Source: Sclerodactyla briareus (taxonomy: Eukaryota; Echinodermata; Holothuroidea; Dendrochirotida; Sclerodactylidae). Taken from it: a stretch of DNA of 64,000 nt. Below the pieces are notes generated by a model, which was given only the letters and a program-made list of their open reading frames with translations, had not been told where the DNA came from and searched no databases. Position numbers and translations under genes: made by a program. Positions 9,061-59,507 of this stretch are shown here, piece after piece; position 1 is the stretch's first letter; each line of letters starts with the position of its first letter. The stretch is from assembly GCA_026419785.1 (NCBI GenBank), contig JAODTK010001388.1, positions 267,971 through 331,970 of the forward strand. Reading direction: 5' to 3'.

Positions 9061-10320
9061 CTATGATTGGGAGCCGCCCTGGCCCGCTTGCGGTCTCTTG
9101 GTTTAGTTAACTACGGCATATAGAGGCCTCCCTCTTTTTCGTGTTGGTCCGGCCTGAACTCTTACAGGGCAGTGACTGCGGTCGTACTTCGTTTCCATTA
9201 TTCACTTTGGGAGGATCAATATGGTCACCGATGGGCTGCGTAAACTGAAACACACCATATGCAGCGTTGGGGACACAGTAATCGCCTCGTTCTCCTGAGC
9301 AATAACCTGTCCGTTTGATTTTTAACTTCCCTGCTCCGTTTGATGGCATCCCAATCCAGAACGATTACAGAAGCCATCAATGATACAAGAGACGAGCTCG
9401 CGCCGATCACTAGTTCAGGAATAAGCTGTTGGTTTACCGTGGCTTGTTATTTGCGTGCTTGATGCCGGAGGAGAACCATGCGAGAATATAACGCCTTCTG
9501 GGGAGGCGTTTTGCATTGTTGTAAACTGAAATTTGCGTGTATTTCCCGTACATTTACCGGTTTGTTGAATTAATAACGGTATCACTCACCGCCTAGACAC
9601 TGGTCCAAGGAACCCTCGGGTAAAAACCTGATCCTGAGATCGGACAAACCTCGTATTGCCTTCTCCGGGTGTCAACGGTCCAACAGTGACTCGTAGTAAT
9701 CTGTTTGTGTTGTCCATTATTTCAGTGTGTTTTCGTGCCATATCTATTCGGGAACCGAAAACTGTTCATCCACGAACCAGTTGAACGTCACATTATCATG
9801 ATAATTGGAGAATACTCCGACAGCGTATGCCTTCCAGATGTCCCATTCCTGAAGCATGCTAGATGACCGCTCTCGACTGTACACGAGCTCTCCTCTTCTT
9901 CTCCTTCGGGCTCACCGTTTATCGTTCACACAAAATTCACCCAACATACATATGTTCCATGTCTGCGTGTCCTCCACTTTGCGGTATTGTGTAGCGCCAA
10001 GAATTATCTTGTTCAAATTGGACTCGACTCGTCTCCCGCCCGGCTGTAATTAGTAATCGAATGTTTTGCCTTGTTGTGCCGGTCGTGCGGCATAATACTA
10101 AAGTAACATTTTCGTGTCCCCAATACAACTTCGTTGGATTCAGGGTCTTTCACATTAAACAAACCCTTAGAAATAGAAGAGGCTAACACGGACACATAAG
10201 AAGGATGTTTAACATTGGAGGTTGAACTGACATTCTTCATGTTGGTATACCTCCCCCAAAGATACAAAGAAACAACATCATTAGTTTTTTATTCGATAGT
10301 TTCGTCCCTACTCCCTGCAT
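9061..10320 (-). CDS. Ig-superfamily membrane receptor, copy A (frameshifted)
   Basis: Copy A of the receptor family. On the minus strand the signal-peptide exon runs 10320 to about 10251 (hydrophobic core LMMLFLCIFGG), then a GTATAC donor. The Ig region starts near 10166 and contains VKDPESNEVV, a TYVCWVNF equivalent broken by one indel, and CFRNGTSG-type sequence near 9860. A stalk follows, then a membrane helix IGASSSLVSLMASVIV (about 9350-9410). The tail has DPPKVNNGNEV and a frame-shifted PLYAVV motif near 9120, and ends at a TAG at 9061-9063, in the same place as copy E. The order signal-Ig-Ig-stalk-helix-tail indicates a type I plasma-membrane protein. Single-base indels interrupt the frame about every 50-100 bases, and the flanking non-coding sequence shows the same pattern, so assembly error and decay cannot be separated. 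No named orthologue is claimed. Confidence 0.65.
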
Positions 10321-10329
10321 CTTGCCATG

Positions 10330-13000
10330 CAACGGTGTGCAAAAACGACAGCAGACATGGTTTGGACTTGGATCCTCTAGAAAAATATTCACATACAATG
10401 GCGCGTAGATATCCTGTTATAGTTAACCACATATATTAGGATTCATAATAGCAAAACTGTGTCAGGGTAAAGGACATCCACAGGTAGAAAATTTTCTTTC
10501 CTCAGAGAAATAACGGATCCTTTCACAACAAACTGCAAGACGAATGCTTCCCTTGCCCCAGGTGTGTAACAAGACGGCCGATACTGCACAAAGCGCATGT
10601 AATGGTTGGGCCATCAGTCTTGATGGTTAGTCCACTTCAGCTTTTCATAGTTACTATTTGTTTTGCTACGCGCAAAACCCATTAACAAAGGCATCATTCA
10701 CTAAAATTTAGTCCCCCCCCGGACAATCATCCCCGAAATCCTTTGACCTATTCTGCCCCCGTGGCAGGTATCCTAGGTTCGGCAAACAAAATGGCGGAAA
10801 ATAACAAAGTATTCTAGCAAACTCTATTGATCATCCATCATGACGTTACCTGAACTTTTACCTGTTTCTATCGACTATTTTACAACTAAACCCCTGATAA
10901 CATTCGATTTGTACCAAAAATACATGAGAGGTAACGTTTATTACTTTTACCAGGTGCTGATTTTTTTGTGGATTCTGTTGGTGCGGGAGAAGACCTCCTA
11001 GTATCGTCTAGTATCGAAAGTTCCACAAGCGTGTCGAGGCTCGTCGTGAAATGCAAACTCATCATGAGTCGGCATTAAGCCTCATAATATTATACTTATA
11101 ATAAAAAAATATTCGATTAGTTACATAATTCTCAAACCATGATACGTACGCACTTTATGTTTTTTTGTGAACAACCAAGTTAAGTAGAACGAATACAGTC
11201 CATGCCCTTTTCATCCTGTCAGTGCCTATCTATCTAAAATTAATCATTTTTTTTTCAAGGCACTTTTCTTTCTTCTTTATTTTTTATTTAACAGCTAGGA
11301 CAAACTGTAAAACCCCAGAAATAAAATTAAGGGTGATTTAGCTCAGTCACACTTTATAACTTGCCCGGAGATTCTGTATCGATATGGCTACCAAGTAGTG
11401 GAACATGTCTATGTTAAGAAAGTGGAATATCACACTAGTCCTCTTAGCCCTTAGCATGCATTCCCTAATATATATATATAGGGAGAGAGAGGAAGGCCCG
11501 AAGGTCGGAAATCTGGGAGTGGTGAAAAGGTCATGGCTCCACCGAGATGCCAACCGCGGACCGCTCGCTTCACTTGCAGCCGCGCGCCCTGCCAATTGAG
11601 CTATGAGACCAACTGGTGGTTGAACTCAGTAAATGATACCGTTCAACGTGAGATCGTGCATCTATACTTTGAACATTCTAGTTTCTATTGTTGATGTCAC
11701 TATCCTTAGGGTCAACATTGATACATTCCGCCCTGGGCAACCACTTGGTACTCACTATAGGAAGTGGCGGAGGTGACTATTTCGTGTATGTAATTCCAGG
11801 AGTGAGTGACACCCTTTGGAGAAAATTGGAGAAAAAATAGAAAGAGCGGCCAAATTAAGACAGAACACAATCCTATTCCTGAGAGATGGACCCTTCATTA
11901 ATCAAAGCGGTCTATGCCTGTCATAGTCCCAGTTAAAAATATATTTATTATCTAGAGGCGAATTATGCGGGGCCCACGTAGGCCTGTATAAATCGCTACA
12001 TTTGGTTGTGTTCCCAAGCTGAAAACGCATGAAAGGGGAAACATTTCAAAGGTTCAACTATTTCACACATCAATTTAGTATGAATGCGTCATTTTAGTTC
12101 ATTTGCACCGATAGAGTTCAATGATAGTGCATTTGAAATGTTACTAACAACACATAGGGCTAGTCTGGATAGGCTGAAAACAGTCGGACAAACGGACATG
12201 GCCAGTGAATCGTCTGTGCGAACGAAGCTGTTATTTCGTTCTCTGAGGAATACTTTAGAACGACTGGGACTTTATTTCCTTGTTAAAGAATACTTTAAGG
12301 AACATGAAAAACGTAGACACAACCAAACTGTATATTCAACTATATATTGTGTTATTTATCTATAATGTTTTAATTCCGACTAGAATGCCTTCTCGTATAG
12401 TTATGTCTTTTAGAATATTTGGAGTCCCGTGGAATTCATAACTTCGTCAACAGGTCGGGTGGGCCTCGCCAAAAGACGTTTAAATAAACGGTAAGAAAGT
12501 TGCATAATCTGCAATATTCGCTGAATAAAGAATACTACGAAGGATTGTTTATTGATTACTATATAGGCTAACAAGGTTAGGATTTTCGGATGCGGGTTGC
12601 GGCATGGATCTAATTAAAATCGTATTCTCCGAGCAGACCTACGGACTGTCTGCCATGGCTTTGTCGGCTTGCAGAGATAAAGCAAGACAAGATCCGGATA
12701 TTATCAAACCAGTTTCTGAGTAGGCAGATGACTACGTGTACCGATGCTGCGTTGAATTGATGCCACATCACCGCCAAATGAAGTTCTGGAGTCTTTACTC
12801 TTTAAGTTATTCACACGTTCAATGTTGAGCTGAAGAATGACACACGCATCACACAAGCTTCCTCCCCTCTCCAGACACACAAACACCCCTCTTCTCCCAA
12901 AATTGCGAGTTCCCACTTTCAATGTTGCATTTCGGATCCGCACCTGTATGAACGGAAGATACAGGCCTCATTTCTCAGATAACCATCAAAACAACCACAT
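10330..13000. repeat. beta block, copy I (matches 36730-39450)
   Basis: Direct-orientation duplicate of 36730-39450, continuing without a break into the LINE at 13745. Fragments also occur at 34860-35170 and 55680-57030. It lies immediately upstream (in the minus-strand sense) of receptor A, so its first few hundred bases are the 5' flank of that gene. It contains a tRNA-derived SINE (11400-11640). No confident gene was found; a 93-codon plus-strand frame at 12084-12365 is only partly preserved in the other copies. Confidence 0.7.
11400..11640 (-). mobile_element. tRNA-derived SINE, copy I
   Basis: The minus strand around 11620-11535 reads like a tRNA head. An A-box region TAGCTCAATTGGCAGGGCG is followed about 45 bases later by a degraded B box (GGTTGGCATCTCGGTGG, where an intact box would read GGTTCGAATCCCGGTGG). 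It is followed by purine-rich GAGAGAGG and an (AT)n run near 11470. The same insertion sits at 37800-38010, so it predates the segmental duplication. It is too degraded to be an intact tRNA gene. Confidence 0.5.
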
Positions 13001-13744
13001 GGATCGAATATAGGGGTTCCTATTACGTATACGTTTCTCATTATCTGCGGGAATCTAGAGGTCAGGGTCATTCCACGGGTGCACTTTTGATTTAATTAGC
13101 ATACGTTAAGTACAGTACAGTACACTTATACATGTTCTCATCAGTAGCAAAATTTATATTTTTTGGTTTACAAACGCGAGGAGTAAAGATGCGAAGTCCA
13201 TCACGATTCTGAGAAGAATGTACACGTACTAACTTGACGGTGTGTCAACCGTATATACTCGGTTGCCATTTCCCAAATAACCTTCGCCACCCATTTTCAC
13301 ACACCGATTGCTTGTGGTAAAATTATATACTAAGAGATTATGATGGGCACATTATACGCGTGCCACATCACCTGGTAAAACAGAACCATACCGAACAAAA
13401 CGTTGGTGTTAACAGCTATAACAATATGAGACTCACCGTTAACCTAGTTTAATTATTTCAATAATGAATCCACTTTGAGTATTGTCTTGCTTTGTATAGG
13501 TTCGACCAAATGTTTCGAACCCTGCAAATTCCTGCACCATTACAACGGAATTTTTACTTTCCCTCCAAAACAGGTTGTGTCGGAAAACTACACCAACTTT
13601 GTCATTAGTGCACCACTCCCGAATGTGTCAATTATTACATTAGATGTGTGAGCGTTTTAAGTAATTGTTTTGCGCGTTGTGGCCTCGTTTAGGTATTTGC
13701 TCAACCTAATGTAGGTATTATCTACATTAAACCTCAAAACGCTA

Positions 13745-15060
13745 CAAGATGTTGTTGTGAAATCTTACGAGTTTGGAACCCATTTATCCAATCACCATCT
13801 TATTAATTATTTGGATCGTCATCAGCTTTTATAACAAATGTTCAACATGGTTTTCGGAAAATCACTCCTGTGAACTCAATTGGCCATAACAATCACGACT
13901 GGCTAGAAGCTTGGACGTAAAGCGCAAACTGATGTAGTGATTACAGGTTTCAGCAAAGCATTCGACAAGGTGCCACATAAGCGTCCGGCATACAAGCTTC
14001 AAACACTATGGCATTTCTTGCAGCTCCCCTCACATTGGATAAGGCTTCTTATCAACCGTACCTAGTGTGTTTGTTACGATGTGTCAATGTCACATGGTGC
14101 TGTCTGTCGGGAGTACCTCCTGAACAGTTCTAACCTATTGCTTTTCTCTCGATGTAATTAATGATCTGTCCTACACGGCATAAACTCTACCATATACGTA
14201 TGTTTGCTGATGACTGCATTTTGTAACGAACTATCGGTTGATCACTGACGTGATAGACTCCAACGAGACCTAGATGAATTTTTAATCATGGAGCAAATGT
14301 TGGTAGATCGATCTAAATGCTTCTGAGTGCAAGTCTTGATGGTTACCAATAGAAAGGATTTTCAAACCGATATTTCCTTGATAACACTCCTCTCGACCTG
14401 TGAAAGAACATACATACCTTGGTGTCACAATCACGAGTAATCTCGCATCGCATATCGCATATCAACAACATTGTTCGTAAAACCTTCAAAGTTCTCGGAT
14501 TGATTCGAAGACGACTGTGATATCAAAACTAAAGTTACTGCCTTTTAATCCTTGTTCGTCCCTGTTTGGAATATGCCTCCTCAGTTTGGGATCCATACAG
14601 CCCTTTAACATTACAAACTGGAAATAGTTCAGGGTCTATCAGCCCGCTTTGTTTGCAAAGCCTGTTCTAGATTAACCAATGTGAAGCCCTTCTTCAACAG
14701 CTTGGCTTGCCGACACTGCAGGAGAGAGAAGCGGGGATTCACGACTTCAAGCTTTTCTACAAATCAGTTACCAAGCTGGTGGCTCTCCCAGTCCCGGACT
14801 TTGTCGAGTTGACTAATCATCACTCAAGATCTTCATTGGCCAATGGCTCTAGCTATAGACACGCTTGTGTTTACACAGATGTTTTCAAGTGGTCATTTTG
14901 GCCAGACAATCACAGATTGAACAAATGGTGCTTTCAACCACCAAAAAAAACACAAATCCACTGTCTTTTCTGACATTGATAGAGATGGTTCATCATCAGG
15001 TCCCTAAGCTGGTGCATGTTGCGCCCTATGCAGTGTTCCCACTAGTTGTGTTCGCATAGT
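13745..15060 (+). mobile_element. 5'-truncated LINE (CR1/jockey-like reverse transcriptase), LINE-1
   Basis: Plus-strand pieces of a non-LTR reverse transcriptase appear in order with frameshifts. QHGFRKNHSCE is at about 13840, FSKAFDKVPHK at about 13950 and a GVPQGT-equivalent (GSTS + EQF) at about 14105-14130. The catalytic FADDC is at about 14205, DEFLIMEQ at about 14275, YLGVTIT at about 14415, RPCLEYASSVWDPY-type sequence at about 14560, and LPTLQEREAGIHDFKLFYK at 14707-14770. Early palm-domain and any upstream ORF are absent, so the copy is 5'-truncated as usual for LINEs. It is embedded in the duplicated unit: truncated relatives lie at 40100-40620 and 57040-58020. It is inactive as read. 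Confidence 0.8.
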
Positions 15061-15732: not shown

Positions 15733-15734
15733 TA

Positions 15735-17440: not shown

Positions 17441-17446
17441 TTAGTT

Positions 17447-18482
17447 TCAGTCGTTTGGGTAATTCCACTTCTTATGATGTTTCACGACGATAATAACTAA
17501 CATGATGATCAGAATGATGAAAGAAATAAGGAGCACAATTCCAAACAGATATGGTAGTAAGTGATAGGAGTTGTTCATCTACCAGTCCCATATCCTCGTC
17601 TGATGCAATATGCTTCAATATTATGAAGGTTTGTCCTGTGTTGTTATTCTGTGGTGTTATCGGCATGGTGATTGGCGCTGTTGCAGTGTTGGGTGTCGCG
17701 CATTCTCGTAGAGAGCTGTTGAACCCATTGGACTGATAACGGTATCGCGCACAGAATTGGATATGGGTCCAAGGGTACACCTCTGGCTAAAACCTGATCG
17801 TAGTAGCAGTTAACAACCTCGTATTACTATCTCCGGGGTAAACAGTCCAACAGTGACCCGTATAATCTGTTTGGTGTCGTCCGATATTCAGTGTATTTGT
17901 GTGTCATTGCTCTAGCGGAACCGAAAACGGTATAAATCCACGTACAGTTGAACGTTCTACAGTAGCATGATAATTGGAGAGTATTTCCGATAGCGTATGC
18001 CTCTCCAGATGTCCCATTCCTGAAGCATACTAGTTTACCTTTCTTGATATGCAAACGAAGCTCGCTTTCCTCTTCTGACACACCGTTATCGCTTACAAAA
18101 TTCACCCAGCATACGTACGTTCCATTATGTTTGTCCGTCAGTTGCGGTATTATGTACTCCAAAGAATTATCATTGTTTAAATTGGACGCGGCGCTCTCCC
18201 CTGCTGTATTAGTAATCGTAATGTTTGCCTGTCGTGCCTTTGTACATCATACTAAATGTAAACGTTTTCTTGTCCCACAAATACAACTTCGTTAGATTCT
18301 GGGTCTTTCAAATTAAATAGAACCCACTGAGAAATAGAGAGGCTAACACTGAATGAGAATGATGTTGACCACTGGAGCTGAACTAACAATCTTCATGTTG
18401 ATATTACCTTCCCACAACAAAAGGCGAACGGTATGTTGAGACAAAGAAAACCAACAATCGTTTTCGTGGTCATTCTAATCAT
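17447..18482 (-). CDS. Ig-superfamily membrane receptor, copy B (best preserved)
   Basis: The clearest copy. The signal-peptide exon is 18482-18408 with a GTAATA donor. The next exon starts at about 18326 after the acceptor CTCTATTTCTCAG and begins WVLFNLKDPESNEVVFVGQ. That is a V-like Ig domain: the first-Cys region is shifted by an indel, then come NITITNTAGES and the F-strand signature TDKHNGTYVCWVNF. A second Ig-like domain follows without an evident intron (KLVCFRNGTSGEAYAIG, LQLSCYC, CTWIYTVF). An Asn/Thr/Pro-rich stalk leads to a membrane helix (FGIVLLISFIILIIMLV, about 17480-17550) and the short basic end KHHKKWNYPND, with stop at 17447-17449. It predicts a type I surface glycoprotein with several NxS/T sites. 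Its helix differs from that of A, C and E. At least two frameshifts interrupt it. The ligand is unknown. Confidence 0.72.
18408..18482 (-). other. signal-peptide exon of receptor B
   Basis: Twenty-five codons from ATG to a phase-0 donor (AAG|GTAATA). The basic start (Arg, Lys) is followed by the hydrophobic core TIVGFLCLNIPFAFCC, a typical cleavable signal. Equivalent exons occur at 10251-10320, 36651-36722, about 41454-41540, 53876-53960 and 58749-58826. The longer copies insert a TKLST motif, so B has a short internal deletion. Confidence 0.62.
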
Positions 18483-18700: not shown

Positions 18701-18702
18701 TT

Positions 18703-24800: not shown

Positions 24801-24890
24801 CCGTGTCAAATAAATGCATAATAACCTAAATGATCAAGTTGAGTTGATTGCGGTACTGCTCCATTTCGTAAATTTTCGAGCGCAACGCGC

Positions 24891-29490: not shown

Positions 29491-29498
29491 CGTATCTG

Positions 29499-35170: not shown

Positions 35171-35174
35171 ATAT

Positions 35175-35690
35175 GCGTAACTTCGATTTGGAAACATTTT
35201 TTTTTAATCTGAACAGCCACATTCATCTGACCAGAATTAGTATTTAAATTCACAATAAAAAAGAGTAGAGCTATACAATACAAATGAGTTATATAAAAAC
35301 TTTTTCAATACTTGGAATTAGATTTCCCATTCGCACCTGTCTCAGGTCATCTTCCCAATGCTTATTGATTCCAACAGACCTACCATCCCCACAAAACTGT
35401 AGAATCAAAACATCGCATTTAAGCCTTTCGCATACAACCTCCATGAAAAATCCTAGAATGATGAAATTTCCACCGATCTCATCTAACATATCACGTATTC
35501 GCGTACATCAAATGAATTCTCGGGCTCCGATTAAAAAAAAGGTCTCTACTTCACCGTGTAACCTGTGTATATGGATCAGATACAGATAGACAGATGCGTA
35601 ATCTCCGTGACCTCACTGTTGTAGTAATCTCTCCTTTTTTAATTGACTGGATAATAATTGTGAAGCTTCCCCTGCCCCATTTGATCAGTT
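35175..35690. repeat. epsilon block, copy II
   Basis: Matches about 16830-17330, including the AGTATTTAAA..CACAATA and CTTGGAATTAG landmarks. Here it abuts an A-type membrane exon (receptor C); in copy I it abuts the B-type helix. Confidence 0.6.
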
Positions 35691-36722
35691 CGCCCATAAC
35701 CTGTCGTGTAGGTTTACTTTCCTGCTTTCCGTTTGTGGCGATTTCCAATCAGAACGATTACCAGAGCCGATCAATGATACAAGTGGAAGAGCTGCGCCGA
35801 TCACTGGGTAGGGAATAGGCTTGTTTGGTTTTTAAACCGTTGCTTGTGTTGCGTGCTTTGATGCGGAGGAGAACTCATTCGGAGAATATCATCCATTCTG
35901 GGAGGCTGTTTGCATTGTTGGTACCTGAATTTTCGGTGTATTTCCGTACAAGTTACCGGGTTTGTGTAATTAATAAACGGTTCACTCCTCACCTGAACTA
36001 GACCACCTGGTCCAAGGGACACCTCGGGAAAACCTGATCCGTAGGAGCGGACAAACCCGTATTGCCTTCTCCGGGTGTCAACGGTCCACAGTGACTCGTG
36101 TAATCTGTTTTATGTCGTCCTTTACTTTCAGTGTGTTTATCGGCCATACTCTATTCTGGAACCGAAAACGTGTTTCAATCCACGAACATTTGACGATTAC
36201 ATAGCATGATATTGGAGACTATCTCCGCAAGCGTATGCCTCTCCAGATGTCCCTTCCTGAAGCTCTAGATGACCGCTCTCGACATGTAAACGAAGCTCTC
36301 TCTCTCTTCGGGCACCCCGTTATCGTTCCAAAATTCACCCGCCAACATAATATGTTCCCTTCTGCGTGTGTCCGTCACTTGCGGTATTGTGTACTCCAGG
36401 GCATTATCTTGTCCTAATTGGACGCGACTCTCTCCCCTGCTGTATTAACGTAATCGTAATGTTTGCCTGTCTGTGCCCGTCGGCGGCAATACTACGTAAC
36501 ATTTTCTTGTCCCACAATACAACTTCGTTGATTCACAGGGTCTTTCAAATTAAACAAACCTCCTGCGAAATAGAGAGGCTAACACTGACCCAACAATAGA
36601 AGAATTGTTTTGAACATGGGAGTTGAAACTGACTTCTTCATGTGTATTACCTTCCCTCCAAAGATACCAAGAAACAACACTCATTAGTTAGTAGTCGATA
36701 GTGTTTCGTCCATACTAATCAT
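35691..36722 (-). CDS. Ig-superfamily membrane receptor, copy C (frameshifted)
   Basis: The signal-peptide exon is 36722-36651 with a GTAATA donor; its hydrophobic part is interrupted by one indel. The Ig exon starts near 36565 after CTCTATTTCGCAG and contains NLKDP, a shifted NEVV..GQEN block, and TYVC/CW remnants near 36350. The second-domain end and stalk read well in one frame (SLGPGGLVQVRS, INYTNPVTCTE, HQSTQHKQRFKNQTS; 35801-36022). The membrane helix IGAALPLVSLIG (about 35745-35795) is of the A/E type, then a short tail (KSPQTESRKVN) runs into epsilon sequence. The A/E-type tail with the Tyr motif is missing, so C has lost or exchanged its cytoplasmic end at about 35690. Confidence 0.62.
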
Positions 36723-36729
36723 GCTTATT

Positions 36730-39700
36730 AGCATGACGGTTTTGCAAAAACGACGCAGACAATGGGTTTGGACTGGATCCTCTACGAAAATATTCAACAG
36801 ACAATGGCGCGGTAAGATATGACTGGTATAGTTAACCACATATATCGGATTCATAATAGCAAACTGGTCAGGTACAGGACATCCCAGTCAATAATTTTCT
36901 TTCTTCAGAGAAATACGGATCATTTCCACACCAAACTGCAAGACGATAGCTTCCCTTGCCCAGTGGGTAAAGACGCCGATCACTGAACAAAGCGCATGGT
37001 CTGGTTGGGAGCTCAAGTTTGAGTTTAGTCAGCTTCAGCTTTTCATAGTTATATATGCCTACGCGCAAAACACTTAACAAGGCAATCGTTTCAGCTAAAA
37101 AATTATCCCCCCCCCACAATCATCACCAAATATTTGACTATTCTGCCCCGTGGCAGGTATCTAGGTTATCATAGTCCCGGCACACCAATGGCGGGAAAAT
37201 ACAAGTATTCTAGCAAACTCCTATTGATCAGCCATCCTGACGTTACACTGAAGCTTTGACCAGGGGGAGGGGGGGGGGCTGTGTCTACTAATCGCTATTT
37301 ACACCCCGATACTTCGATTTGTACAAAATACAGGGAGTAATGTTGATTACTTTTATTTTACCAGGTGCTGATTTTTCTGTTGGATTTTCTTGTTGGTGTG
37401 GGACGAAGACGCGCCCTATTATCGTCTAGTACGAAGTTCAAGCGTGTCGAGCTCGCTTGAAATGCAAACTCATCATGAGTCGGCATGAAAGCCTCATAAA
37501 TAAATAACTTTAATAAAAAATAATTCGATTAGTTCAATAACTTCAACCATGATTACGCACTTTTTTATGTTTTTGTGACAACCAAGTTTAAGTAGCAGAA
37601 CGAATACAGTCAATGCCTTTTACAACTGCGTGCCTATCTAATTAAATCATTTTTTTTTCCAGGCCACTTTCTTCTTTTTTATTTACAGCTGTTGACAACT
37701 GAAACCCCCAGAAATAAATTAGGGGACGTTTGTCAGGCACTTTTACTTTCCGAGATTCTGTATAGATATGCTATCCCAAGTAGTGTGAACATGTCTATGT
37801 AGAATGGATATACACAGTCCTCTTAGCCCTTAGCCATGCATTCCCTATATTATATTAGGGAGAGAAGAGACGGCCCGAGGTCGGATCTGGGAGTGGGCGA
37901 AGCTCACTGGCTCCACCGAGATGCCCCCCAACCGCGGACCGCTCGCTCACTTGCAAGCGCCCTGCTGCCAAGTGAGCCTATGAGCCAACTGGGGTTTCGA
38001 ACGCGAGGAAAATGATGACCTTCACTGTGCGATCTGCATCTCTTGAACAATTCTCGTTCAATGGTTGATGCACTATCCTTAGAGGTCCAAAATTGATCAT
38101 TCGTCCGACCTGGGGACCAATTGGTACTCACTATAGGGAGGTGGGGCGAGTGACTATTTCGTGTATGTAATTCCAGGAGTGGTTGACACCCTTTTGAGAA
38201 AATTGGAGAAAAATATAGAAAGCGAGGCCCAAATTTATAGACAGCATAGACAATCAATCCTATTCCTGAGAGATGGACCCTTCATTAATCCAAAGCGGTC
38301 TATGTCTGTCATAGTCCCAGTTCAAATATATTTATATATAGAAGGCAATTATGCGGGGCCCATTATGCCTGTATATCGATACATTTGGTTGTGTTCCCAG
38401 ATGCGCTGATAAGCATGAAAAGGGAAACATTTCAAAGGTTCAACTATTTCACATAATTTTTTTTATGACTTCTGTCATTTTAGTTTCATTTGCACGTATG
38501 ATTCAAAGATCGTGCATTTGAAAGTTTACTACTCACACTAGGGCTGTCTGGAATAGTCCGAAACAGTCGGACAAAACGGACATGCTAGTAAATCGTCTGT
38601 GCGAACGAAGCTGTAATATTTCATTTCTATCTGAGAATACTTGAGAACGCGGGACTTTATTTCCTTTGTTAAAGAATACTTTAGGAAACAATGAAAAACG
38701 TAAGACAACCACCACAATTTATTCAACTAGATCAGTATGTAGTTATTTATCCTATAGATGTTTATTACGACTAGAATGCCTTCTCGTAATAGTTATTTCT
38801 TTTAGGAATATTTGGAGCAACCGTGGAATTGTCATAACCTTCGTCACCGGTGGCCTCTGCCCCAATACGTTTAAATAAACGGTCAAGAAGTTGCGATAAT
38901 CTGCTTAATATGCGCTGATCAATGAATAACTCCGAAGGATTGTTTTTGATTACTATATAGGCTAACAGGTTGGATTTCGATGCGGGTTGCGGCATGTCTA
39001 CTTAAAATCGTATTCATTCCGAGAACGCCCCCGTACTGTCTCATGGGCTTTGATCGGCTTGCAAAGATAAAGCAAACAAGAATCCGGGATTTAATCCAAC
39101 AGTTCTGAGTAGGCAAGATGACTACGTAGTATACCACCTGCTGCGTTAATGTCACATCACCGCAAATGAATTACATGGAGTACTTTACTCTTAGTAGGTC
39201 ACGTTCATATGTTTGAGCTGAAAAAATGACACGCCATCACACAGCTTCCCCTCTCCCACAAACCCCCTCTTCCAAATTGCGATTCCCACTTTCCATGTTT
39301 GCAATTCCGGATCCCACCTTAGGAAAGAAATACAGGCCTCATTTCGCAGATAACCTCAGAAACAACCACATGGGAAAAATCGAATATGGGGTTCCTATTA
39401 CTTACTTATACATTATACTGCAGGAACGCTAGAGGTCAGTCTTCCACCGATGCACTTGATTTATTAGCATACGTTAAGTACAGTAAGTACATTATAACAT
39501 GTTCTCATTCGTAGCAAATTGTAATATTTTGGTTTTACAAACGCGGGAGTAAAGATGCGAATCCCATCACAGATTCTGAGGAGAATGTACACGTACTAAC
39601 TTGACGGTGTGTCAACCGTATATTACTCTCGTCATTTCACAAATAACCTTAGCCCCATTTCACCGAACTTGCTTGTGGTAAAATTATCTAGACTAGAAGA

Positions 39701-40100
39701 TAGATTATGATCAAATTATACGAGTGTCCACATCTAACTGTAAAAACAGAAAGATACCGAACAAAACGTTTGGTGTTAAAGCTAGTAACCTATGAAGACA
39801 TACAGCCGTTAACCATTGTTATGTCAAATGAAAATACACTTTAAGAGAATTGGTCTTTCTTTGTAATGGTCTACAACTTTTCGAACCCTGCAAATTCCTG
39901 CACCATTACAACGGAATTTTCCTCCACTCAAAAGGGTGTGTGAACTACCACCAAACTTTGTCATTGTGCACCACTCCTCACCACTCCCGAATGTGTAAAT
40001 TATTACATTAGATTGTGAGGAGCGTTTTAGTAATTGTTTGCGCGTTGTGGCCTCGTTTAGGTATTTCTCAACCTATTGCAGGTAGTTCTCTAGCATTAAA
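36730..40100. repeat. beta block, copy II, continuous into LINE-2
   Basis: Aligns with 10330-13745. Shared features include the SINE, GAGATGGACCCTTCATTAATC and GTTGCGGCATG. A G-rich run at 37262-37278 is not in copy I. Indels outnumber substitutions in most of the alignment. Confidence 0.7.
37800..38010 (-). mobile_element. tRNA-derived SINE, copy II
   Basis: Same insertion as 11400-11640: reversed A-box area (AAGTGAGCCTATGAGCC as read on plus) and GGCTCCACCGAGATGCC for the degraded B box. An AT run and GAGAGAAGAG lie alongside. Confidence 0.48.
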
Positions 40101-40620
40101 CCTCAAACCAGCTATCATAGATGGTGTGTGAATCTTCGAGTTATTGGAACCCATTTATCCATCACCATCTTATGCATTATTTTGGATCGTCCATCAGCTT
40201 TTATAACAAATGGTTCAACATGGTTTTTTGAAAAATCACCCGGAACCTCAAATTGTGCTATAACATCAACGATCTGGCTAGAAGCTTGGACTGTACAGCG
40301 CAAACTGAGTAGTGATACAGATTTCACAAGCATTCGACAAGGTGCCACATAGCTTCCGGCCTACAAGTTCACCACTATTGACATTTCTTGCAAGATCCTC
40401 ACATGGATAAAGGCTTTCTTATCACCGTAACCTAGTGTGTGTTATCATGGTGTCAATCGTCACATGGTGCTGTCTGTCGGGAGTACCTCAGGAACAGTTC
40501 TTATACATTGTCCTTTTCTCCGCTTTTCTCTCGATGTATTAATGATCTTACCTACACCTACACTCTACCATGAGGGGTGGGGGACGGATGTTTGTTGATG
40601 ACTGCATTTTGTACTGAACT
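40101..40620 (+). mobile_element. truncated LINE (LINE-2)
   Basis: Copy of LINE-1 with the same 5' end but cut off after the catalytic region. QHGF equivalent is at about 40215, GFHKHSTRCHI (a shifted SKAFDKVPH) at about 40330, GVPQEQF at about 40480 and a FVDDC-type word at about 40600. At about 40622 the sequence switches to receptor D stalk sequence, so this is a recombination junction. Confidence 0.72.
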
Positions 40621-40639
40621 ATCGTTGCTCGCTTGTTTG

Positions 40640-41540
40640 GTTCCAGGGTGGCTTGTAGTCGCGTGGCTTGATGCGGAGACTCATGTGGAGATATATTTCA
40701 TTCTGGGAGTTGCTGTTTTGCATTGATTTGTACACGCTGATTTAGGTGTCTTTCCGGACAAGTTAATTACCGTGTTTTGTTGAATTATAACGGTAGCATG
40801 CACAGAACTGACTGTGATTCTAGGGAACACCTTGGTCAGAGACTGCTCCGTAGTAGCAGTCAAACCTCGTATCACTTTCTTCGAGTGTCAATCTCGTAGA
40901 TCGTTGAGCGTCCATATATTTCAGTGTGTTTTTCGTGTCATTCGATTTTCCGGAACCGAGTATGTATCAACCACTTACAGTTTAATGTTCCTACAGTAGC
41001 ATGATAATTAGAGAGTATATCCGACAGCGTATGCCTCCCCAGATGCCCATTCCGAAGCAGCTACTTTACTGCTCTCGACATGCCACCAAGCATCGCTTTT
41101 CTCTTCATACGCACCGTTATCGTTCACAAATTCTCCCAACAATACGTACGTTCCCATTATGTTCGTCAGTCCATTGCGGTATTGGTGATCCAGCGATTAT
41201 TTTCTTGTTCAATTTGGACGCGACGCTCTCCCTGCTGTAGTAGGATCTAATGTTTGCCTTGTTTGTGCGCTGTCCCGCCGGAACTAGGTAACATTTTCTT
41301 GTCCACAAATACAACTTCGTTAGATTTCGGGGTCCTTTTCAAATTGAACAAAACCTCCTGAGAAATAGGAGAGGCTAAACACTGATACCATGAGAAGATG
41401 TTGACCACTTGAAGCTGCACAACATTCTTCATGTTGATATTTACCTCCCCCCCACAGAAGCACCCCCTAACGGACGTGGAAAAGGAACAACAACGTTTTT
41501 CGGGGTCGAGAGTTTCGTCCCGTACTCTCTCGCGTCTTTT
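40640..41540 (-). pseudogene. Ig-superfamily membrane receptor, copy D, lacking its membrane end
   Basis: The signal-peptide region is at about 41540-41454 (TKLSTPKNVVVPF in a shifted frame, no clean ATG). The Ig exon follows from about 41358 (acceptor CCTATTTCTCAG) and includes NSNEVVF-type sequence, then ESVASKLNKK and IPQWTDEHNG. Second-domain remnants extend to about 40900 and stalk sequence to about 40640. No membrane helix or tail follows: LINE-2 begins at once. Upstream flank is zeta type, like B. As read it could only give a secreted or degraded product. Confidence 0.62.
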
Positions 41541-50779: not shown

Positions 50780-52677
50780 ACATTGGAGGCATTTGTCGAT
50801 GTGAGTCACGTGTGACCGATGACCGACCGGCTACGAACATGCTACACGGGAATAAATCCCTGGGAGCCGGGCGTAGATTCATCTCTCCTGATCAGCTGGT
50901 TCTGGGCCTCACTCACTTCGTTGCCTTCAAGAGGCTCTGTGGGTCCTGTACAGTTGACATCTATGAGCTCACAGTTGTTACATAGCTCGAGGTTCGATTC
51001 CGGGGTGTCTTTGTACCTCTCAAGGGTCTTCATTGATTCCATACAGTAGCAATGATGATCGCGCGCATTCTTTTTATAATCCGAACTAACCACCTTTGCC
51101 TTTGTGTAGTGGGAGTTTCGAAGGTTGCAATCCGTTCCTTGTATAGTGGAGTACCGCAGTATTAATATTGTAAAACTGATATGTATAACATATTCGTCAT
51201 CATATGCGTACATAGGAAATATTACTTAAAACAAAATAGTAGGGTATGTAACATTCAAAACCATATGAACCATGCTCAACACAGCCCGGGTAACAAATAC
51301 TTGGCTAAATTGTCATAATTGGTCGACTGAAGTTTCTTCGTCTGAAGTTTCTCTCCGCTACCAAATTACAACTGATTATCAGTGAATTAAAAAGTTGATA
51401 GAACTCTGCCCAACAGTGTATTGTGTCTCATTTCTTTCTCACTATTTCTGGATCTGTGGCCAGATGCATACTCGTGATCTTACTGCAGTAACATACAAAG
51501 GAAACTCTTATGCTCCATAATGCGGCATGTGGTGAATGTGAAAATTGTAAATTTATGCGAGGAAGGTCGCTATTTTTAGATGTAATTGAACTGTCTATCG
51601 ATGTGAGAGAGGGTCCTAAATATCTAGCAACCCATGGCTAAAGATGATAAATTGTTCTATGAGGGAGATATTCCATGACATCATTTTCCGTGATGGCGGC
51701 ATCAATTGTCACTCAGTACACATGGTCCATTTCAGCCTATTCGTGCTCGTTCACATTATGATTGGATGATATGTTGACGCTAAGGACTTGCTCTATATAT
51801 CCAACGAATTGTAGATGGATACTCTGTCCCATGTTGTACTCGCGTTAATCCGCTATTGTGCTGCCAGTAGCATCCCGCATCCGCACCTATGGCATCCTAG
51901 CGTTTAAGGTGAGATTCCATAAGGGCGGATGCGTAGTGCTATACGCCTCCAGATTCAAATTGTTACGTGTGCTGGTCGTGCGAGTGTTCGTATATGCTGT
52001 ATTCGATATTTAGATGTGTGGATTCTATGGGGGCAAATAATTTTATTCAAATAGAATGAACAAGCACTAGTAGAAGCACTCCCCTTGTAGCCAAGCGACT
52101 TTGATGTCGCGTACTGCGGATGACTCTATGGAATATCGTCGTCATGAAGCCAATCACGTCACGTATGCATGAGTTGCTCTGCGTTTTCCTATTGCTCATA
52201 CACTTCATCCGCTTCTATATAACGTCAAAACTGATTTTTTCACTAATACCGCACTTCCGCATTACCGCACTCAAGGGTATCCTACCTCGACGGTAGCACC
52301 TCACAAACGACGAATAAATTGTTTGTCACTTCACCACTAGCATACTATGGGAAAAACAGAGCACCAAACATTGAAATATGTAAATGAACGGGAAACCCGA
52401 ATCCATTTTCAATTCACTTTCTTCTCAAGAATCTATCAAAATAATTCCCACTGTACCAGTGTGTCCCATTTTCCATACTAACAATTTCATTGACCTGGGC
52501 TGCGGCTAGTTGCGTCTTGTATTTTCTGAAGCATCTCTCTGTTCGACCTGTAAGCCCGTCTGAACATACATCCTAAACATCAATCTACATGGTTGATCTG
52601 TTATGTAAGCTACTGCGACCCATATTCCGCCGATCAACCGCGTCCGAGCGTAATCACCTTCGTCCTTGTCAGTCCCA
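50780..52677. repeat. alpha block, copy II
   Basis: Partner of 6950-9060, again directly downstream (minus sense) of a receptor copy with an A-type helix. A GGTTCGATTCCGGGGTG B-box-like sequence is at about 50991-51007. Confidence 0.6.
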
Positions 52678-53960
52678 CTATGGATGGGAGCCATCCTGGC
52701 CCACTTCGGCCTCTTGGTTCATTACTACAGCATATAGTGGGAGCTTCCTCTTTTTCGTGTTGTCGGCCTGACTCTTGACAGGGGCAGTAAGTGAGGTCGG
52801 TACTTCGTTTTCATCGTCCATTTTGGGGAATCCATATAGGCACCAGTCGATGCGTAATCTGGACCACGTCTATGCAGCGTTTGTGGGACACAGTATCGCC
52901 CTCGTTATCCTGCCCAGTAACCTGTTCGTTTGATTCCCATTCCTGCTCCGTGTGTTGACGATTCCAGTCAGAAACGATTGCCAGGACCATCAATAATACA
53001 AGCGAAAGAGCAGCGCCGATCACTAGGTAGGGGAATAGGCCATGTGGTTTAATCGTGCTGTAGTTGCGTTGCTTAATGGCAGAGGAGGCTCGTGCGGAGA
53101 ATATATTTCATTCTGAGGAGGTTGCTTTTGATTGGTGAGCTGGAATTGAGGTGTTCTTCCGGACAAGTTACCGCATAAGTATATGTTGAATAATAAACGG
53201 TATCACGCGTAGATTGGGACGTTGGTCCAAGCGGAACACCTCTGCTGAAGTACTCCTCCGTAGTAGCAGTCGAACCTCGTATTAATATCTCAGAGGTCAA
53301 CAGATTAACGGTGGACCCGTATGATCTGTTGGTGTGTCCATTATTTCAGTAGGTTCTTGTGCCTATACTGCCCTCCGAACAGCCGAAACCCTGAACTAAC
53401 ACTCCCGTACAAGGCTTGAACAAGTTCTACCGTCGCATGATAATGGAGGAAGTACTCCGACCGCTATGTTATCCAATGTCCCATTCTGAAACATGTAGAT
53501 GACCGTCTCAAATGCAAACGAAGCTCGCTTTTTCTCTTCATACACACGTTATTGTTCACCAAATTCACCCAACATACGTAAGTTTTCTATGTGCGTCAGT
53601 CAATTGCGGTATTGTGTACTCCAAGCAATATCTTTGTGAAAATTGATGCGACGCTCTCCCCTGCTGGTATAGTAATCGTAATGTTGCCTTGTTTGCGCCC
53701 GTCCAGCGGCATACTAAGGTAACATTTTCTTGTCCCACGAATACAACTTCGTTGGATTCAGGGGTCTTTTAAATTGACACAAAACCTCTGAGAAATAGAC
53801 GAGGCTAACACTGAATACAATGCGAAAGGATGCTGACCACTGGAGCTGAAGTTACAGTCTTCATGTTGGTATTACCTTCCTCCAATAAACAGCTAAGGTA
53901 CGTTGAGACGAAGAAAAAAAAATCGTGTTCGTGGTCGATGTTCGTCCATTACTAGTCCAT
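52678..53960 (-). CDS. Ig-superfamily membrane receptor, copy E (best tail)
   Basis: The signal-peptide exon (53960-53876) is followed by a GTAATA donor but is frame-broken by an A/T-run indel. The Ig exon from about 53797 gives ESNEVVFVGQENVTLVCRW in one frame, the clearest first-cysteine strand in the family. Later blocks are shifted (YPNIRKFSMC-type region near 53570). The membrane helix VIGAALSLVLLMVLAIVSDW (about 52965-53023) is intact. The cytoplasmic tail runs EQVTGQDNEGD, then KMDDENEVPTSL, SQADNTKKRKLPLYAVVMNQ and DGSHP to a TAG at 52678-52680. YAVV fits a YxxPhi sorting or SH2-type tyrosine motif; the residue two before Tyr is Pro, so it is not a standard ITIM. Type I surface receptor; partner unknown. 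Confidence 0.68.
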
Positions 53961-55400
53961 GTATTCTTTGCCCAGGTAAGGGTGTTGCCAAATCAATAGC
54001 AGGCAACGAGTAGAACTGGATCCTTCGAGAAAAATATTTATGGAGAATAGTGGCAGTGGAAATTGAATGGTTTAGTCACGGACATCCGTTAGGTTACAAA
54101 TGTTCTTCATCGAGCAAGGTGGATCCTTTCCCATGTTTTTAACTTGGCCGCGTTGTTAGCCCAATAAACTATAGAAGGTGGCTTCTTTGTCCAGTTAGAC
54201 GACAACGACCCTGAACAAAGCGCATGTCTTGTTGAAAAAGCATTCATTTCGACGGTTTTCGTTAGCTTCAATTTCCATATAAAGGTCTTCATGCAAAACA
54301 CATACAATGACGTCGTTCGGCAGAAAAACATGTATCTAGGTCGGCAAACAAAAAGGCGGGCAAGTAACAAGTATTCTAGCTACTTTGATCGGCCTTCATG
54401 GGTTATACTGAACTTCGACCTGTTCCTTCAATGTTCACACCTCTGAACTAAAGTCGATGCGTACCAAAAGAAACACGGTAGATACGGTATGTCTGATTGA
54501 ATTCTGTGAGGGATTCCTTTGGGAGAGGACAGCATGGTACGTCTAGTATGAACTCTAAAATGGTAGGTGATTCGATTACCCATTCTGTTACACTATAGAA
54601 CAAAGTTCTTAGGACTACGAACTTTAAAGAGACAACACAAAAAACTCATCGACTTCAAAATTATAATCACGAAATAATCTGGATGTTATAATAATTATCT
54701 AATCATGAAGACAACCTATTTCTGTAAACAATAAAATGGAGTGAGTATCAAAAGATTACAGTCAAGGTACTTTGCATACTGCAGTGATTAGTCAATGCGA
54801 AGTGCATACAAATAATTAATTAACATTTTCAAGAACAGTTCCCCTTTTCAGGATCTCTGTACAGTTTTCTCACTACGAAGTTGTAACTGAACATGATGAT
54901 TCAATAGTAAAAATTGAAAGAACACTAGCTGGACGTGGTGCGCTTATCGAAGCGTTTGTGGGGTTGTCGGAAAAATCTTTCTTCGAATTTTAAGTTTAGT
55001 GTGCAAAGTTCCCGATTATCAGTACTGCTTTCTGGAAGTTTTCGACTCGAGAGGATTAAACAAGCACCCACGTGATGCTCTTAGATAATTGAGGTATCAA
55101 CACTGTAGAGAATTTAGATTTTTATAAGGAAATATAAAGATACTAAGACGTGGTTAGTTGGAATGCGTATGTGCAAACGAACTGCATATCCAGTTTTTTT
55201 CTTCTGGAATTTCTTGTGGAAAGCAGAAACCTGTGTGATGAGGCTAGTCAATATCCGTTTTCTTTGTTCAAGAATACCCGTGAGAACAATCAAGCACGTA
55301 GAAGTGAAAAAAAACCACACATAATGTTCGTAGAATATTTAAACTACGACTAGTAGCCTTTATGTTAAAGATCTTTCTTCAGGGAATACTTGGAAAAAAA
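53961..55400. repeat. zeta-type 5' flank of receptor E (diverged)
   Basis: Resembles 18500-20210: GCAGGCAA.G.GTAGAACTGGATCC, AAAGCGCATGTCTTGTTGAA and AAACAAAAAGGCGGGCAAGTAAC. It is shorter, with the GTTAACCACA core mostly lost. No gene was recognised; 55400-55680 also shows none. Confidence 0.5.
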
Positions 55401-55679
55401 TCCGAAAGTAGGTAGGCAATGTGGCCTGTCTACATCTCAAGGCGTTCGAGAACTAGATGTAAACAGACACGATAGCCCTAGATTTCTTCAGATGACCTAG
55501 ACATGAACAGATAAACGCCCGTGCAGGTGTAAAATGAATAAATGAAACTATGATGTACATAGGTCCGGTCTTCCAGAAATAGGTGAAAACCAAGTGCGTT
55601 CACCATCAAAAGAAATGACAACAAGTTGGAGTTACGAGTTGGACATTGTACAAAGCTTTGGCAAAAAGCGGGACCCGTC

Positions 55680-57030
55680 CAAAGGACTCCATGTAGGACC
55701 ATTCATTCATTTAATTAAACGGTAAGAAATTGTTGTAATGAATTGGGGAGAATACTCGCTGAACCACAATCACGATGTGCACCATTCAAAAAGAGAAATG
55801 AACAAGTTTTTGGAGTTACACGTTGGGAATTGTCACAAACTTTGTCAACGCGATGACCCCGTCCAGAGAGTTCCTTGTGACATTTCAATCTCAGTTCATC
55901 AAACGAATTTAATTAATTATACGCTGATTCAGAAAATATGGTTTAAGAGGATTTCATCATCCACTACATGAACTAACAATGTTAGAATTCAGACGGTGAC
56001 GTGGGATGTGGGATGCGCATGACTATCAAATCGAATCACCTGAGAAACATACGTGGGAAGTGTGTGAATGGGCTTTGATCGGCTTGCAGACGTAAACCCA
56101 AATATCATCAAAATACATTGAAAAACAGCATTGAATAGGCGAGATGACCACGGTGTACCAATGCTGCGTTCAATTGATTGCCACATCACCGCAAATGAAT
56201 TGCATGAGTATCGTTCCTCATAGTAATGCCACGTTCATAGTAATGAAGGAAATGACACGCCATCACAACAGTTTTCTTCTTCTAACAATCACCTTCTCCT
56301 CGAAATTGCGATATCCGCACCTAGGGAGTACAAGAATACAGGCCTCATTTCTCAGATAACCATCAAAACAACCACATGGACCCAATATAGGGGTAACCAT
56401 TACGCCTATGACCAGCTAGTTAGAGAATGCATTATACTGCAGAACAGCCAGAGGTCAGGTCATTCCACGAGTGCACTTTTGACTTAAGTAGATACGTTAG
56501 TACAGTAACAATTGATACATGTCTCATCGGTTAGTAAAATTTGAATATTTCTGTTCACAACGCGGGAGTCGAAATTGACGGTGTGTCAACCGTAAATTAC
56601 TCGTCATTTCACAAATAACTTAGCACAGTTCACCGAACTTGCTTGTTTGTAACATCACATACTAGAGAGATTATTGACAAAATTATACGGGTGCCCTCAT
56701 CCACGTAAGAAAGAACAGAAGACACCGAACGAAAAACGTTTGTGAACAGCTATAAAAAATCTGAAACATACAGCCGAACCTAGTTAATTATGTCAATAAT
56801 GAAAATCCAATTGTAGGAGTATGGTCTTGCCTGGTAATAGCCAACAAATGTCCCCAAACCATGCAAATCCCTGCACCATTGCAACGGAAATTTTCACTCC
56901 ACTCCAAAACATGGTGTTCGAAAATACATCAACTTACAATCTTAAATATAAAGCGCGTTGGGGCTCGTTTAGGGATTGCTCGACCACCTTAATGCAGATA
57001 TTTCTACATTAAAACACCTCCAAAACAGCT
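55680..57030. repeat. beta-block piece, copy III
   Basis: Matches 12480-13740 (TTAAACGGTAAGAAA, GGGCTTTGATCGGCTTGCAG, CCATCAAAACAACCACATGGA, GACGGTGTGTCAACCGTAAATTAC) with internal losses, and leads into LINE-3. Confidence 0.6.
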
Positions 57031-57039
57031 ACAGAGATG

Positions 57040-58020
57040 GGGGGTGAAATCTTTCAAATTATTGGAACACATTATCCACCACCATCTTAGGAATTAACTT
57101 GGATCGTCATTCAGCTTATACAAATGTTCAACATGGTAGAGTACCTCAGGGAACAGTTCTGGACCATTGCTTTTCTCCATGATTAATGATCTACTTACCG
57201 AAACTTCAGCTGATCACTGAAAGCGATTGACTCAAACAAGACCTGGAAAAGAATTTTCATCATGGAACAATGTTGGTAGATCGCATCTAATGCTTCTGAG
57301 TGCAAGTCTATGGTGGTTACCAATAGAAAGAGAGTTATTACAAAACCGAATATGTCATGGATACCACTCCTCTAGAGCTCCCAAGAGGGAAAGTGAAAGA
57401 AAATACATTCCTTGGCGGTCCCAATCACTGAGTAATTCTCTCTTAGAAATCGTATGGCAAAGAACCATTGTTTGTAAAGCTTTCGAAGTTCTCACGACTC
57501 TTCACGATTGTGATATCAAAACTAAAGCTAACTGCCCTCATAAATCTCTTGTTCGTCCCGGTGGGAATATGCCTCCTCAGGTCGGGATACCAACAAGGCA
57601 TGTTACTTTACAAACTGACGATAGTTCAGCGTAGAGCAGCTCGCGTTGTTTGAAAAACCTATTGTCGACAACCCAGTGGGACAGCCCTTTTTCCCCAGCT
57701 TGGCCTTGCCAGACACTGCAGGAGGAAGGCGGGATTCGGGATTTAACGACTCAAGCTTTTCTACAAACCAGTTAACAAGCTGGTGGGTCTCCCAGTACCA
57801 GACTTAGTCGAGTTGACTAATCATCACTCAAGATCTTCATTAGCCAATGGCTCTGCTATAGCACGTTTGGTTTACCAGATGTTTCAAGTGGTCATTTGAA
57901 GAACAATTCCAGATTGGAACACTGTGCTTTCGAAACAGCCACCCAAAAGAACACGAATCCACATTGATAGAGATGCGTTCATCATCAGGTCTTCAAGCTT
58001 TGGATGATTGAATGCTGCCC
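57040..58020 (+). mobile_element. LINE-3, internally deleted reverse transcriptase
   Basis: Same LINE as 13745-15060. After the NVQHG word (about 57125) it jumps straight to VPQGTVLDHC (about 57140), losing about 300 bp that in LINE-1 encode FSKAFDKVPHK. The FADDC region is also missing. YLGG-type, VRPGGNMPPQ and TLQEEGGIRDL words follow to about 57760. It cannot be catalytically active. Confidence 0.72.
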
Positions 58021-58715
58021 CCCTATGCAGTGATGACCATAGTTGGTGTTTGCAGTAGACGACAAGACAGACAAGACCATCTTTGGGAGGGTCGCATTCG
58101 TGACATGTATGTGAGTTTCCAAACTCCTTTTCTCGAGTGAGAGTGATTGATGCCACGTCCTTCGTACAAAAAAGGGAATGCCATCCTACACAAAACAAGA
58201 ACATTGCGCCGTATAGTCACAGGAACGTTATTTCTGTAGATATAATACTGTTTTCTGCTATAATGTGTATTTATAGTTCTCCCCTTTGTATATCCGAGTC
58301 GTCGGCGTGATCCAAATCAGAAAAAGAACCTTATGTTCATCTTTAGGAATCACCATGTCTCTAAAAACGTATTATGATAAGTCTCATTTACACCTAAATA
58401 AATGACTTCAGGTGGATCTCAATATTAGGCTGAAACTCGGGAAAAATATTCCTATATGGACTATTAGAGCCAGAGCCCCTACTGTGAATAATACATAATA
58501 TCCATATTTATTTATAACAATACCAATAGGAACATTTTAGGTGCGAACCTCGAACGTAGCTGAGCCTCTGAACTTGTTCCTTATACACCGACTGTCAAAT
58601 ATTACATTCCAGTGACGTATGTACGGGTACGTGAAAAGCCGCCCGATATTATTTTTTCTCCCTTTTTTTTTGGGGGGGGGGGGGGCTCACGTGGCTTCGA
58701 ATCAGGTAAATCTCG
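58021..58715. repeat. delta block, copy II
   Basis: Partner of 15061-15567, ending in the same T(n)G(n) run (58663-58687). About 30 bases later it switches into the receptor signal-exon region (relic F). Confidence 0.6.
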
Positions 58716-58748
58716 TGTGTCATAAAAACATGCTGATTATTCAAAAGA

Positions 58749-58826
58749 CTAACGGTAGTGAGGACAAAGAAACAGAGATAACAACAAATCGTTTTTCGTG
58801 GTCGAGAGTTTCGTCCGACTAATCAT
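58749..58826 (-). pseudogene. receptor relic F: signal-peptide exon only
   Basis: ATG at 58826 opens SRTKLSTTKNDLLLSLFLC and stops at 58749. It matches the signal exons of copies A-E, with an intact TKLSTT motif and hydrophobic core. No donor, Ig domain or membrane helix follows on the minus strand; delta sequence starts at once. It is a recombination remnant of a sixth receptor. Confidence 0.6.

Positions 58827-59426: not shown

Positions 59427-59507
<81 letters not shown>

What the first reader, a model, noticed from the sequence alone, without database searches (positions are those of the whole stretch)
9061..58826. Tandem cluster of at least five Ig-superfamily type I receptor genes plus one relic
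Seen directly: six signal-peptide exons, at least five Ig regions and several distinct membrane helices, all on the minus strand, embedded in directly repeated blocks. The V-like domain signature (NGTYVC after a D-K-H turn) and the phase-0 signal intron are shared. Inference: a fast-evolving receptor cluster of immune or self-recognition type. I found no match to a named receptor family by memory.
Basis: partly seen in the sequence, partly recalled or inferred. Interest (0 to 1): 0.72.

Follow-up and report, generated by a model that had tools for sequence, protein, structure and literature searches.

The report
Tandem cluster of Ig-domain receptor genes
An animal-like genome carries a row of related genes that look like cell-surface receptors, each with an immunoglobulin domain outside the cell and a tyrosine-bearing tail inside, and they seem to have swapped parts with each other; it looks like one more example of the receptor clusters animals use for immune or self recognition, but the sequence is error-ridden and the species unknown, so the function is only a guess.

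Summary
Five paralogous minus-strand genes (A-E) and one remnant (F) lie in directly repeated blocks. They belong to a family of 13 located copies that two genome searches found only on this 332-kb contig of a 319-Mb assembly, always on one strand. Anatomy: signal peptide, Ig domain D1 (Pfam Ig_3 1.8e-5 in an unedited open frame at 218k, below Pfam's cut-off; Ig_2 1.2e-6, above it, in my edited version), a domain D2 that no library recognises, stalk, hydrophobic helix, tyrosine-bearing tail. New here: two tail classes, and ectodomains shared across them. Copies 139k and 218k are 89% identical in the ectodomain, 72% upstream, 53% in the tail; copy C joins one class's helix to the other's tail end. 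Best reading: a receptor cluster, probably for immune or self/non-self recognition, with exchange of modules. New member of a known kind; organism unnamed.

The parts
8983..10240 (-). Copy A (contig 276953-278210): signal peptide, D1, D2, stalk, helix (about 9350-9413), class-2 tail
   Evidence: 22 frameshifts in 398 codons
17188..18396 (-). Copy B (contig 285158-286366): signal peptide, D1 (about 18045-18323), D2 (about 17765-18042), stalk, helix (about 17470-17545), class-1 tail; best-preserved copy in the window
   Evidence: 9 frameshifts in 381 codons, 2 in-frame stops
35554..36635 (-). Copy C (contig 303524-304605): D1, D2, class-2-like stalk and helix (about 35735-35804), then class-1-like tail end: mosaic
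   Evidence: (class-1 tail score 105; maximum 44 in 24 random pieces)
40676..41432 (-). Copy D (contig 308646-309402): signal peptide, D1, D2, class-2-like stalk; no helix or tail recognised
   Evidence: tail scores 33 and 34; maxima 44 and 50 in 24 random pieces
52602..53864 (-). Copy E (contig 320572-321834): signal peptide, D1, D2, stalk, helix (about 52960-53026), class-2 tail
   Evidence: 26 frameshifts in 401 codons
58742..59404 (-). F: remnant; only flank upstream of the gene is recognisable; no D1, D2 or tail match; a run of 76 T lies at 59432-59507
9302..14246 (.). Directly repeated block with copy A, 79.8% identical to 35696-40633
35696..40633 (.). Directly repeated block with copy C, partner of 9302-14246

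Best explanation
This is part of a single-locus tandem array of type I transmembrane receptor genes of the immunoglobulin superfamily, in an animal (inferred) whose genome is held as an error-rich assembly. Each full gene encodes a signal peptide, an Ig domain (D1), a second cysteine-containing domain with a Cys-Trp-Cys pattern (D2, fold not shown), a stalk, one hydrophobic helix and a cytoplasmic tail with conserved tyrosines. Two diverged tail classes (34% identical; shared N-x-x-Y-x-x-S-x-Y-x-S-T-G and A-P-x-Y-x-x-V motifs) sit behind ectodomains that are exchanged between genes. Inferred mechanism: D1/D2 bind a ligand on another cell or a microbe, and the tail tyrosines are phosphorylated and recruit SH2 or PTB proteins; duplication plus gene conversion makes receptors with like binding faces but different signalling tails. 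Shown: array, domain order, tail classes, mosaic copies. Inferred: expression, ligand, signalling, immune or self-recognition role.
For: Family found on one contig and strand only: Ig fragment 15 matches (18 candidates scored), class-2 tail 12 matches (13 scored). 13 copies located, 12 with D1. At 139k one open frame of 249 aa runs from the end of D1 through D2, stalk and helix into the tail. D1: unedited open frame at 218k Ig_3 1.8e-5 and Ig_2 2.8e-5, both below cut-off; after frameshift-tolerant reading Ig_2 1.2e-6, 29.1 bits against 27; Ig_3 at E up to 1 in 6 of 8 D1 sequences scanned, Ig_2 in 4 of 8. Tails related: BLASTP 2e-8 over 34 residues of helix (single comparison), shared tyrosine motifs in one class-1 and two class-2 tails. 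Module exchange: 139k vs 218k bins of 78-95% from -100 to +600, 65-73% in the seven bins from -800 to -100, 41-59% beyond +600. C mosaic. dN/dS below 1 in D1 and tail of the better copies.
Against: Every copy has frameshifts under the model (2 to 33). D2 matches no Ig model (0 of 9), no Ig structure and not D1. The fold of the window fragment is poor (pLDDT 45.7). The Ig score above cut-off comes from an edited sequence, the unedited ones stay below. No transcript evidence. Over all pairs the median dN/dS is 0.58 (D1), 0.68 (D2), 0.74 (helix and tail), and substitution and indel rates are equal in coding and non-coding parts, as neutral decay would also give. The ATG-to-D1 length is a multiple of 3 in only 3 of 12 copies. 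The tail tyrosine motifs lack the -2 residue of a canonical ITIM (recalled consensus).
Confidence: 0.6

Rival explanations
1. A graveyard: most copies are pseudogenes of one or a few live receptors, decaying neutrally by small indels and stops.
For: 9 of 13 copies have 4.1-8.4 frameshifts per 100 codons, above the 1.2-3.4 of three control exons that I had chosen because they looked broken; the four low copies include three (134k, 139k, 218k) that supplied the reference, so their counts are biased down. Coding and non-coding parts change alike. D lacks a helix, F lacks the gene, 134k lacks D1.
Against: Frameshifts also break conserved actin and HSP70 exons that are 86-90% identical to the human proteins. 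Indels are 69% single-base in coding parts, with 2.6 substitutions per indel. Non-coding indel excess around each copy tracks its coding frameshift rate (Pearson 0.77, 13 copies), as consensus error predicts, though shared age of copy and flank predicts it too. Tail motifs persist through the shifts.
Confidence: 0.3
2. An ordinary adhesion or pattern-recognition IgSF family without a self-recognition role, expanded like many lineage-specific receptor families.
For: Type I architecture and YxxV tails are compatible with adhesion molecules; no polymorphism data; nothing here ties the locus to allorecognition.
Against: A single-locus tandem array with module exchange between genes of two tail classes is more typical of recognition receptor clusters (established knowledge, recalled).
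Confidence: 0.35
3. The duplicates are partly assembly artefacts: uncollapsed haplotypes or mis-joined reads.
For: Error-rich assembly; copies alike over kilobases.
Against: Substitution differences alone are about 11-35% between copies in the ectodomain, above haplotype divergence in most animals (recalled), and the copies sit in tandem at different spacings with different tails.
Confidence: 0.07

Closest known systems
Hydractinia Alr family (allorecognition complex)
   Same: Clustered single-pass IgSF membrane proteins in one interval, with apparent pseudogenes (PMC11067881, passages seen)
   Different: Huene et al. 2022 is not held and was not seen
Botryllus fester co-receptors (FcoR) and fester family
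   Same: Linked type I proteins with Ig domains and long tails that can carry Y-x-x-I/L/V core motifs (PMC12065747, passages seen)
   Different: FcoRs have a variable-type Ig, a sushi and two C2-type Ig domains, 520-610 aa; here about 400 aa, one recognised Ig domain, no sushi recognised. A tunicate marker search (GH6) was empty, but its control rang nowhere either
Vertebrate paired receptors (CD300; KIR and LILR recalled)
   Same: Like ectodomains joined to different cytoplasmic parts, with gene conversion (CD300A/C: PMC12447643, search listing with start of abstract only)
   Different: Both tail classes here carry tyrosines and no short tail was seen; no charged residue inside the class-1 helix, a Glu near the inner end of the 134k class-2 helix (by eye); no homology shown

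Membership tests
Immunoglobulin superfamily | At least one domain recognised as Ig | tested here: met
   D1 of copy 218k: unedited frame Ig_3 1.8e-5, Ig_2 2.8e-5, below the gathering cut-offs; edited reading Ig_2 1.2e-6, above cut-off; Ig_3 at E up to 1 in 6 of 8 D1 sequences. Window copy B alone: V-set 0.029
   V-set 0.029-0.032, about 15 bits against a 26-bit cut-off
Immunoglobulin superfamily | Second Ig domain (D2) | tested here: inconclusive
   0 of 9 D2 sequences match an Ig model; no Ig hit among solved structures; only a Cys-Trp-Cys pattern
Type I transmembrane receptor | Signal peptide, ectodomain, one helix, cytoplasmic tail in order | tested here: met
   By sequence and eye only, no topology program: 139k frame from the end of D1 into the tail, signal peptide by majority reading in one alignment; D lacks the helix
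Hydractinia Alr family | Sequence or structural homology to Alr1/Alr2 | not testable with these tools
   No Alr sequences in the collections on hand; source paper not held
Hydractinia Alr family | Polymorphic ectodomain controlling fusion | not testable with these tools
   Single assembly, no population or phenotype data
Botryllus FcoR family | Variable-type Ig, sushi and two C2-type Ig domains | tested here: not met
   Pfam scans of three long frames, 8 D1 and 9 D2 sequences find one Ig domain and no sushi
Paired receptors | Much alike ectodomains with different tails | tested here: met
   139k (class 1) vs 218k (class 2): 89.3% ectodomain, 53.0% tail, 71.8% upstream
Paired receptors | One inhibitory (ITIM) and one activating partner | tested here: inconclusive
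   Both tails have YxxV-type tyrosines; no canonical ITIM by the recalled consensus

The most novel reading that the evidence does not exclude
The contig is an undescribed recognition complex of a non-model animal: a single-locus array in which an exchangeable ectodomain is paired by gene conversion with two different tyrosine-bearing tails, a paired-receptor system evolved independently of the vertebrate ones and used for self/non-self discrimination.
Probability: 0.2. Interest if true: 0.75.

Novelty: new member of a known kind. Interest (0 to 1): 0.45.

Why it matters
Clusters of Ig receptors that pair one binding face with several signalling tails are known from vertebrates and from a few colonial invertebrates. 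Another such cluster, with visible module exchange, would show how often animals have arrived at this design and would offer a locus for testing self-recognition in its species. It also shows how easily an unpolished assembly can make a possibly live gene cluster look dead.

Tried and rejected
The elongation-factor search returned three matches that I take by eye for eRF3 and mitochondrial EF-G exons, none that I take for EF1A. 'Animal' is my inference from exons that look titin-like to me (by eye).

Structure: the window copy B fragment folded at pLDDT 45.7, so no fold search was run. D1 vs D2 profile comparison: no similarity. Profiles against solved structures: D1 best E 0.075 (an Ig protein), D2 best 0.25 (not Ig). 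Pfam on ten long frames of the contig outside the family: nothing at E up to 0.1. Rfam on the window plus eight 10-kb pieces: nothing.

Signal exon or fused signal peptide: in one alignment the majority sequence of 12 copies reads from an ATG straight into D1; in a second alignment, with another column rule, the consensus has one base more there and is out of frame. Substitution scores by reading frame did not decide. The octamer CATGAAGA is invariant in 12 of 12 copies, which favours a start codon there.

Controls and dropped rows: my three control exons were chosen because searches had shown split frames, so their rate (9 shifts in 428 codons) is biased upward; other actin and HSP70 matches in those calls are unbroken. 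The reference protein was built from copies 139k, 134k and 218k, which lowers their shift counts. A fourth control piece (a weak histone match, L046) was looked at and not counted. D1 profile A1 used 8 of 12 copies (B, C, D, 54k left out, because of stops or shifts); D2 profile A2 used 9 of 13 (134k, 218k, C, E left out). In the profiles residues inserted relative to the reference were left out. Contig 200001-267970 was not read except 216.6-219.9 and 245.4-248.7 kb. No formal recombination test, topology or signal-peptide program was run.
Full report
WHERE. The window is the last 64 kb of contig C1380 (331,970 bases) of a 319.5-Mb assembly with 3171 contigs. I read contig positions 1-200000, the window, and the patches 216.6-219.9 and 245.4-248.7 kb.

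THE OBSERVATION. Self-comparison of the window shows direct repeats that carry one gene type on the minus strand. Five copies, A to E, hold the Ig region; F keeps only upstream flank. A 139-aa fragment of copy B finds 15 places in the whole assembly, all on this contig and strand (18 candidates scored); a class-2 tail finds 12, again all here (13 scored). With tblastn and a frameshift-tolerant aligner I place 13 copies at about 26, 32, 38, 54, 134, 139, 218, 246, 277 (A), 285 (B), 304 (C), 309 (D) and 321 (E) kb of the contig. The one at 134 kb lacks D1.

ANATOMY. An uninterrupted 249-aa frame at 139 kb runs from the end of D1 through D2, stalk and helix into the tail, so I take these parts to lie in one exon. 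Helices and signal peptides are judged by eye. Upstream, the majority sequence of 12 copies in one alignment reads a start codon and a hydrophobic signal peptide straight into D1, and the octamer around this ATG is invariant in 12 of 12 copies.

IS IT IG. The unedited open frame at 218 kb matches Ig_3 at 1.8e-5 and Ig_2 at 2.8e-5, both below Pfam's cut-offs. In my frameshift-tolerant reading of the same D1 the Ig_2 score rises to 1.2e-6, above the cut-off; 6 of 8 D1 sequences match Ig_3 at E up to 1. No frame of the window itself reaches significance (4 scanned, best 0.029). V-set stays below cut-off, the cysteines are 46 residues apart and I see no C-strand tryptophan in the consensus, so D1 looks nearer to C2/I-type than to V. 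D2 has a Cys...Trp...Cys pattern but no Ig model, Ig structure or similarity to D1; calling it Ig is a guess. The window's own sequence gave only a poor fold (pLDDT 45.7).

ARE THE GENES ALIVE. Every copy shows frameshifts under the model, from 2 to 33, that is 0.8 to 8.4 per 100 codons. But actin and HSP70 exons of this assembly that are 86-90% identical to human proteins also carry 9 shifts in 428 codons, 1.2 to 3.4 per 100 in the three exons. I chose those exons because they looked split, so the figure is an upper guide; other matches of the same genes are whole. Across the contig's repeats, indels are 6% per base in coding and non-coding parts alike, 69% and 62% of them one base long, with 2.6 and 2.8 substitutions per indel; the ratio runs from 1.3 between the A and C blocks to 5.3 between B and 218k. 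The non-coding indel excess around each copy correlates with its coding frameshift rate (Pearson 0.77, Spearman 0.62-0.66, 13 copies). Patchy consensus error predicts this; shared age of copy and flank would predict it too. Four copies (134k, 139k, 218k, B) lie at or below the control range, three of them being those the reference was built from; the nine others exceed it, so some may be truly dead. Selection: among the better copies dN/dS is 0.29-0.48 in D1 (6 pairs), 0.48-0.67 in helix and tail (4 pairs) and 0.50-1.54 in D2 (10 pairs); over all pairs the medians are 0.58 (D1), 0.74 (helix and tail) and 0.68 (D2). This is mild constraint, with error noise.

TWO TAILS, ONE EXCHANGED ECTODOMAIN. 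Class 1 tails are in 26k, 38k, 139k, 246k and B; class 2 in 32k, 54k, 134k, 218k, A and E; C is mixed; D has none that I can recognise. The classes share the helix (BLASTP 2e-8 over 34 residues, single comparison) and two tyrosine motifs, so they are old relatives. Yet ectodomains do not follow the tails: 139k (class 1) is nearest to 218k (class 2) in the ectodomain (89.3%), while its upstream flank is nearest to B (79.9% against 71.8% for 218k) and its tail to 246k (86.6% against 53.0%). In 100-base bins the 139k-218k identity is 37% in the outermost bin, 65-73% in the seven bins from -800 to -100, 78-95% from -100 to +600, then 41-59%. C resembles class 2 through the helix and class 1 at the tail end (score 105, maximum 44 in 24 random pieces). 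Copy 54k has an upstream flank nearest to the class-1 copies B and 246k (77.8%) and a class-2 tail. Gene conversion or unequal crossing-over would explain this; I did not run a formal recombination test, and constraint on coding sequence raises ectodomain identity in general.

WHAT IT DOES. Inferred: cell-surface recognition with tyrosine-based signalling. The design works like a paired-receptor cluster and resembles Hydractinia Alr and Botryllus fester co-receptor loci in layout (passages of PMC11067881 and PMC12065747), but homology with Alr could not be tested and the FcoR domain set is not met. Searches of the held library returned general papers or nothing; no listing named this locus, which says little because the species is unknown.

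Noticed in passing
L041 1501-3135 (C2289, about 127.5-129.1 kb): The end of what looks like a mitochondrial EF-G exon (RYQVPCIAFINKLDR) recurs many times in tandem, as if an intron minisatellite had captured an exon end.
   Followed up: no
C1260:170250-170850, C2792:267400-268000, C2424:94800-95180 (L043-L045): Conserved actin and HSP70 exons carry frameshifts: the assembly has consensus indels.
   Followed up: yes
window 59432-59507: A run of 76 T next to remnant F.
   Followed up: no
C1380:27858-30013, 144267-145337, 327547-329689: Further repeated block of 75-82% identity upstream of copy 26k, near 144 kb and beside F; the duplicated unit may include about 3 kb of flank.
   Followed up: partly
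C1380:62497-64665, 105832-107694, 127747-129874: A repeat of about 2 kb, two copies direct and one inverted, 79-82% identical, perhaps a transposon; not scanned.
   Followed up: no
whole assembly: The PF00009 search gave three matches, none that I take for EF1A; histone matches were four, weak and partial, best 8.5e-11.
   Followed up: no
L002, L003 (C2804, 67-75 kb): Ig exons that look titin-like to me; not compared with the family.
   Followed up: no
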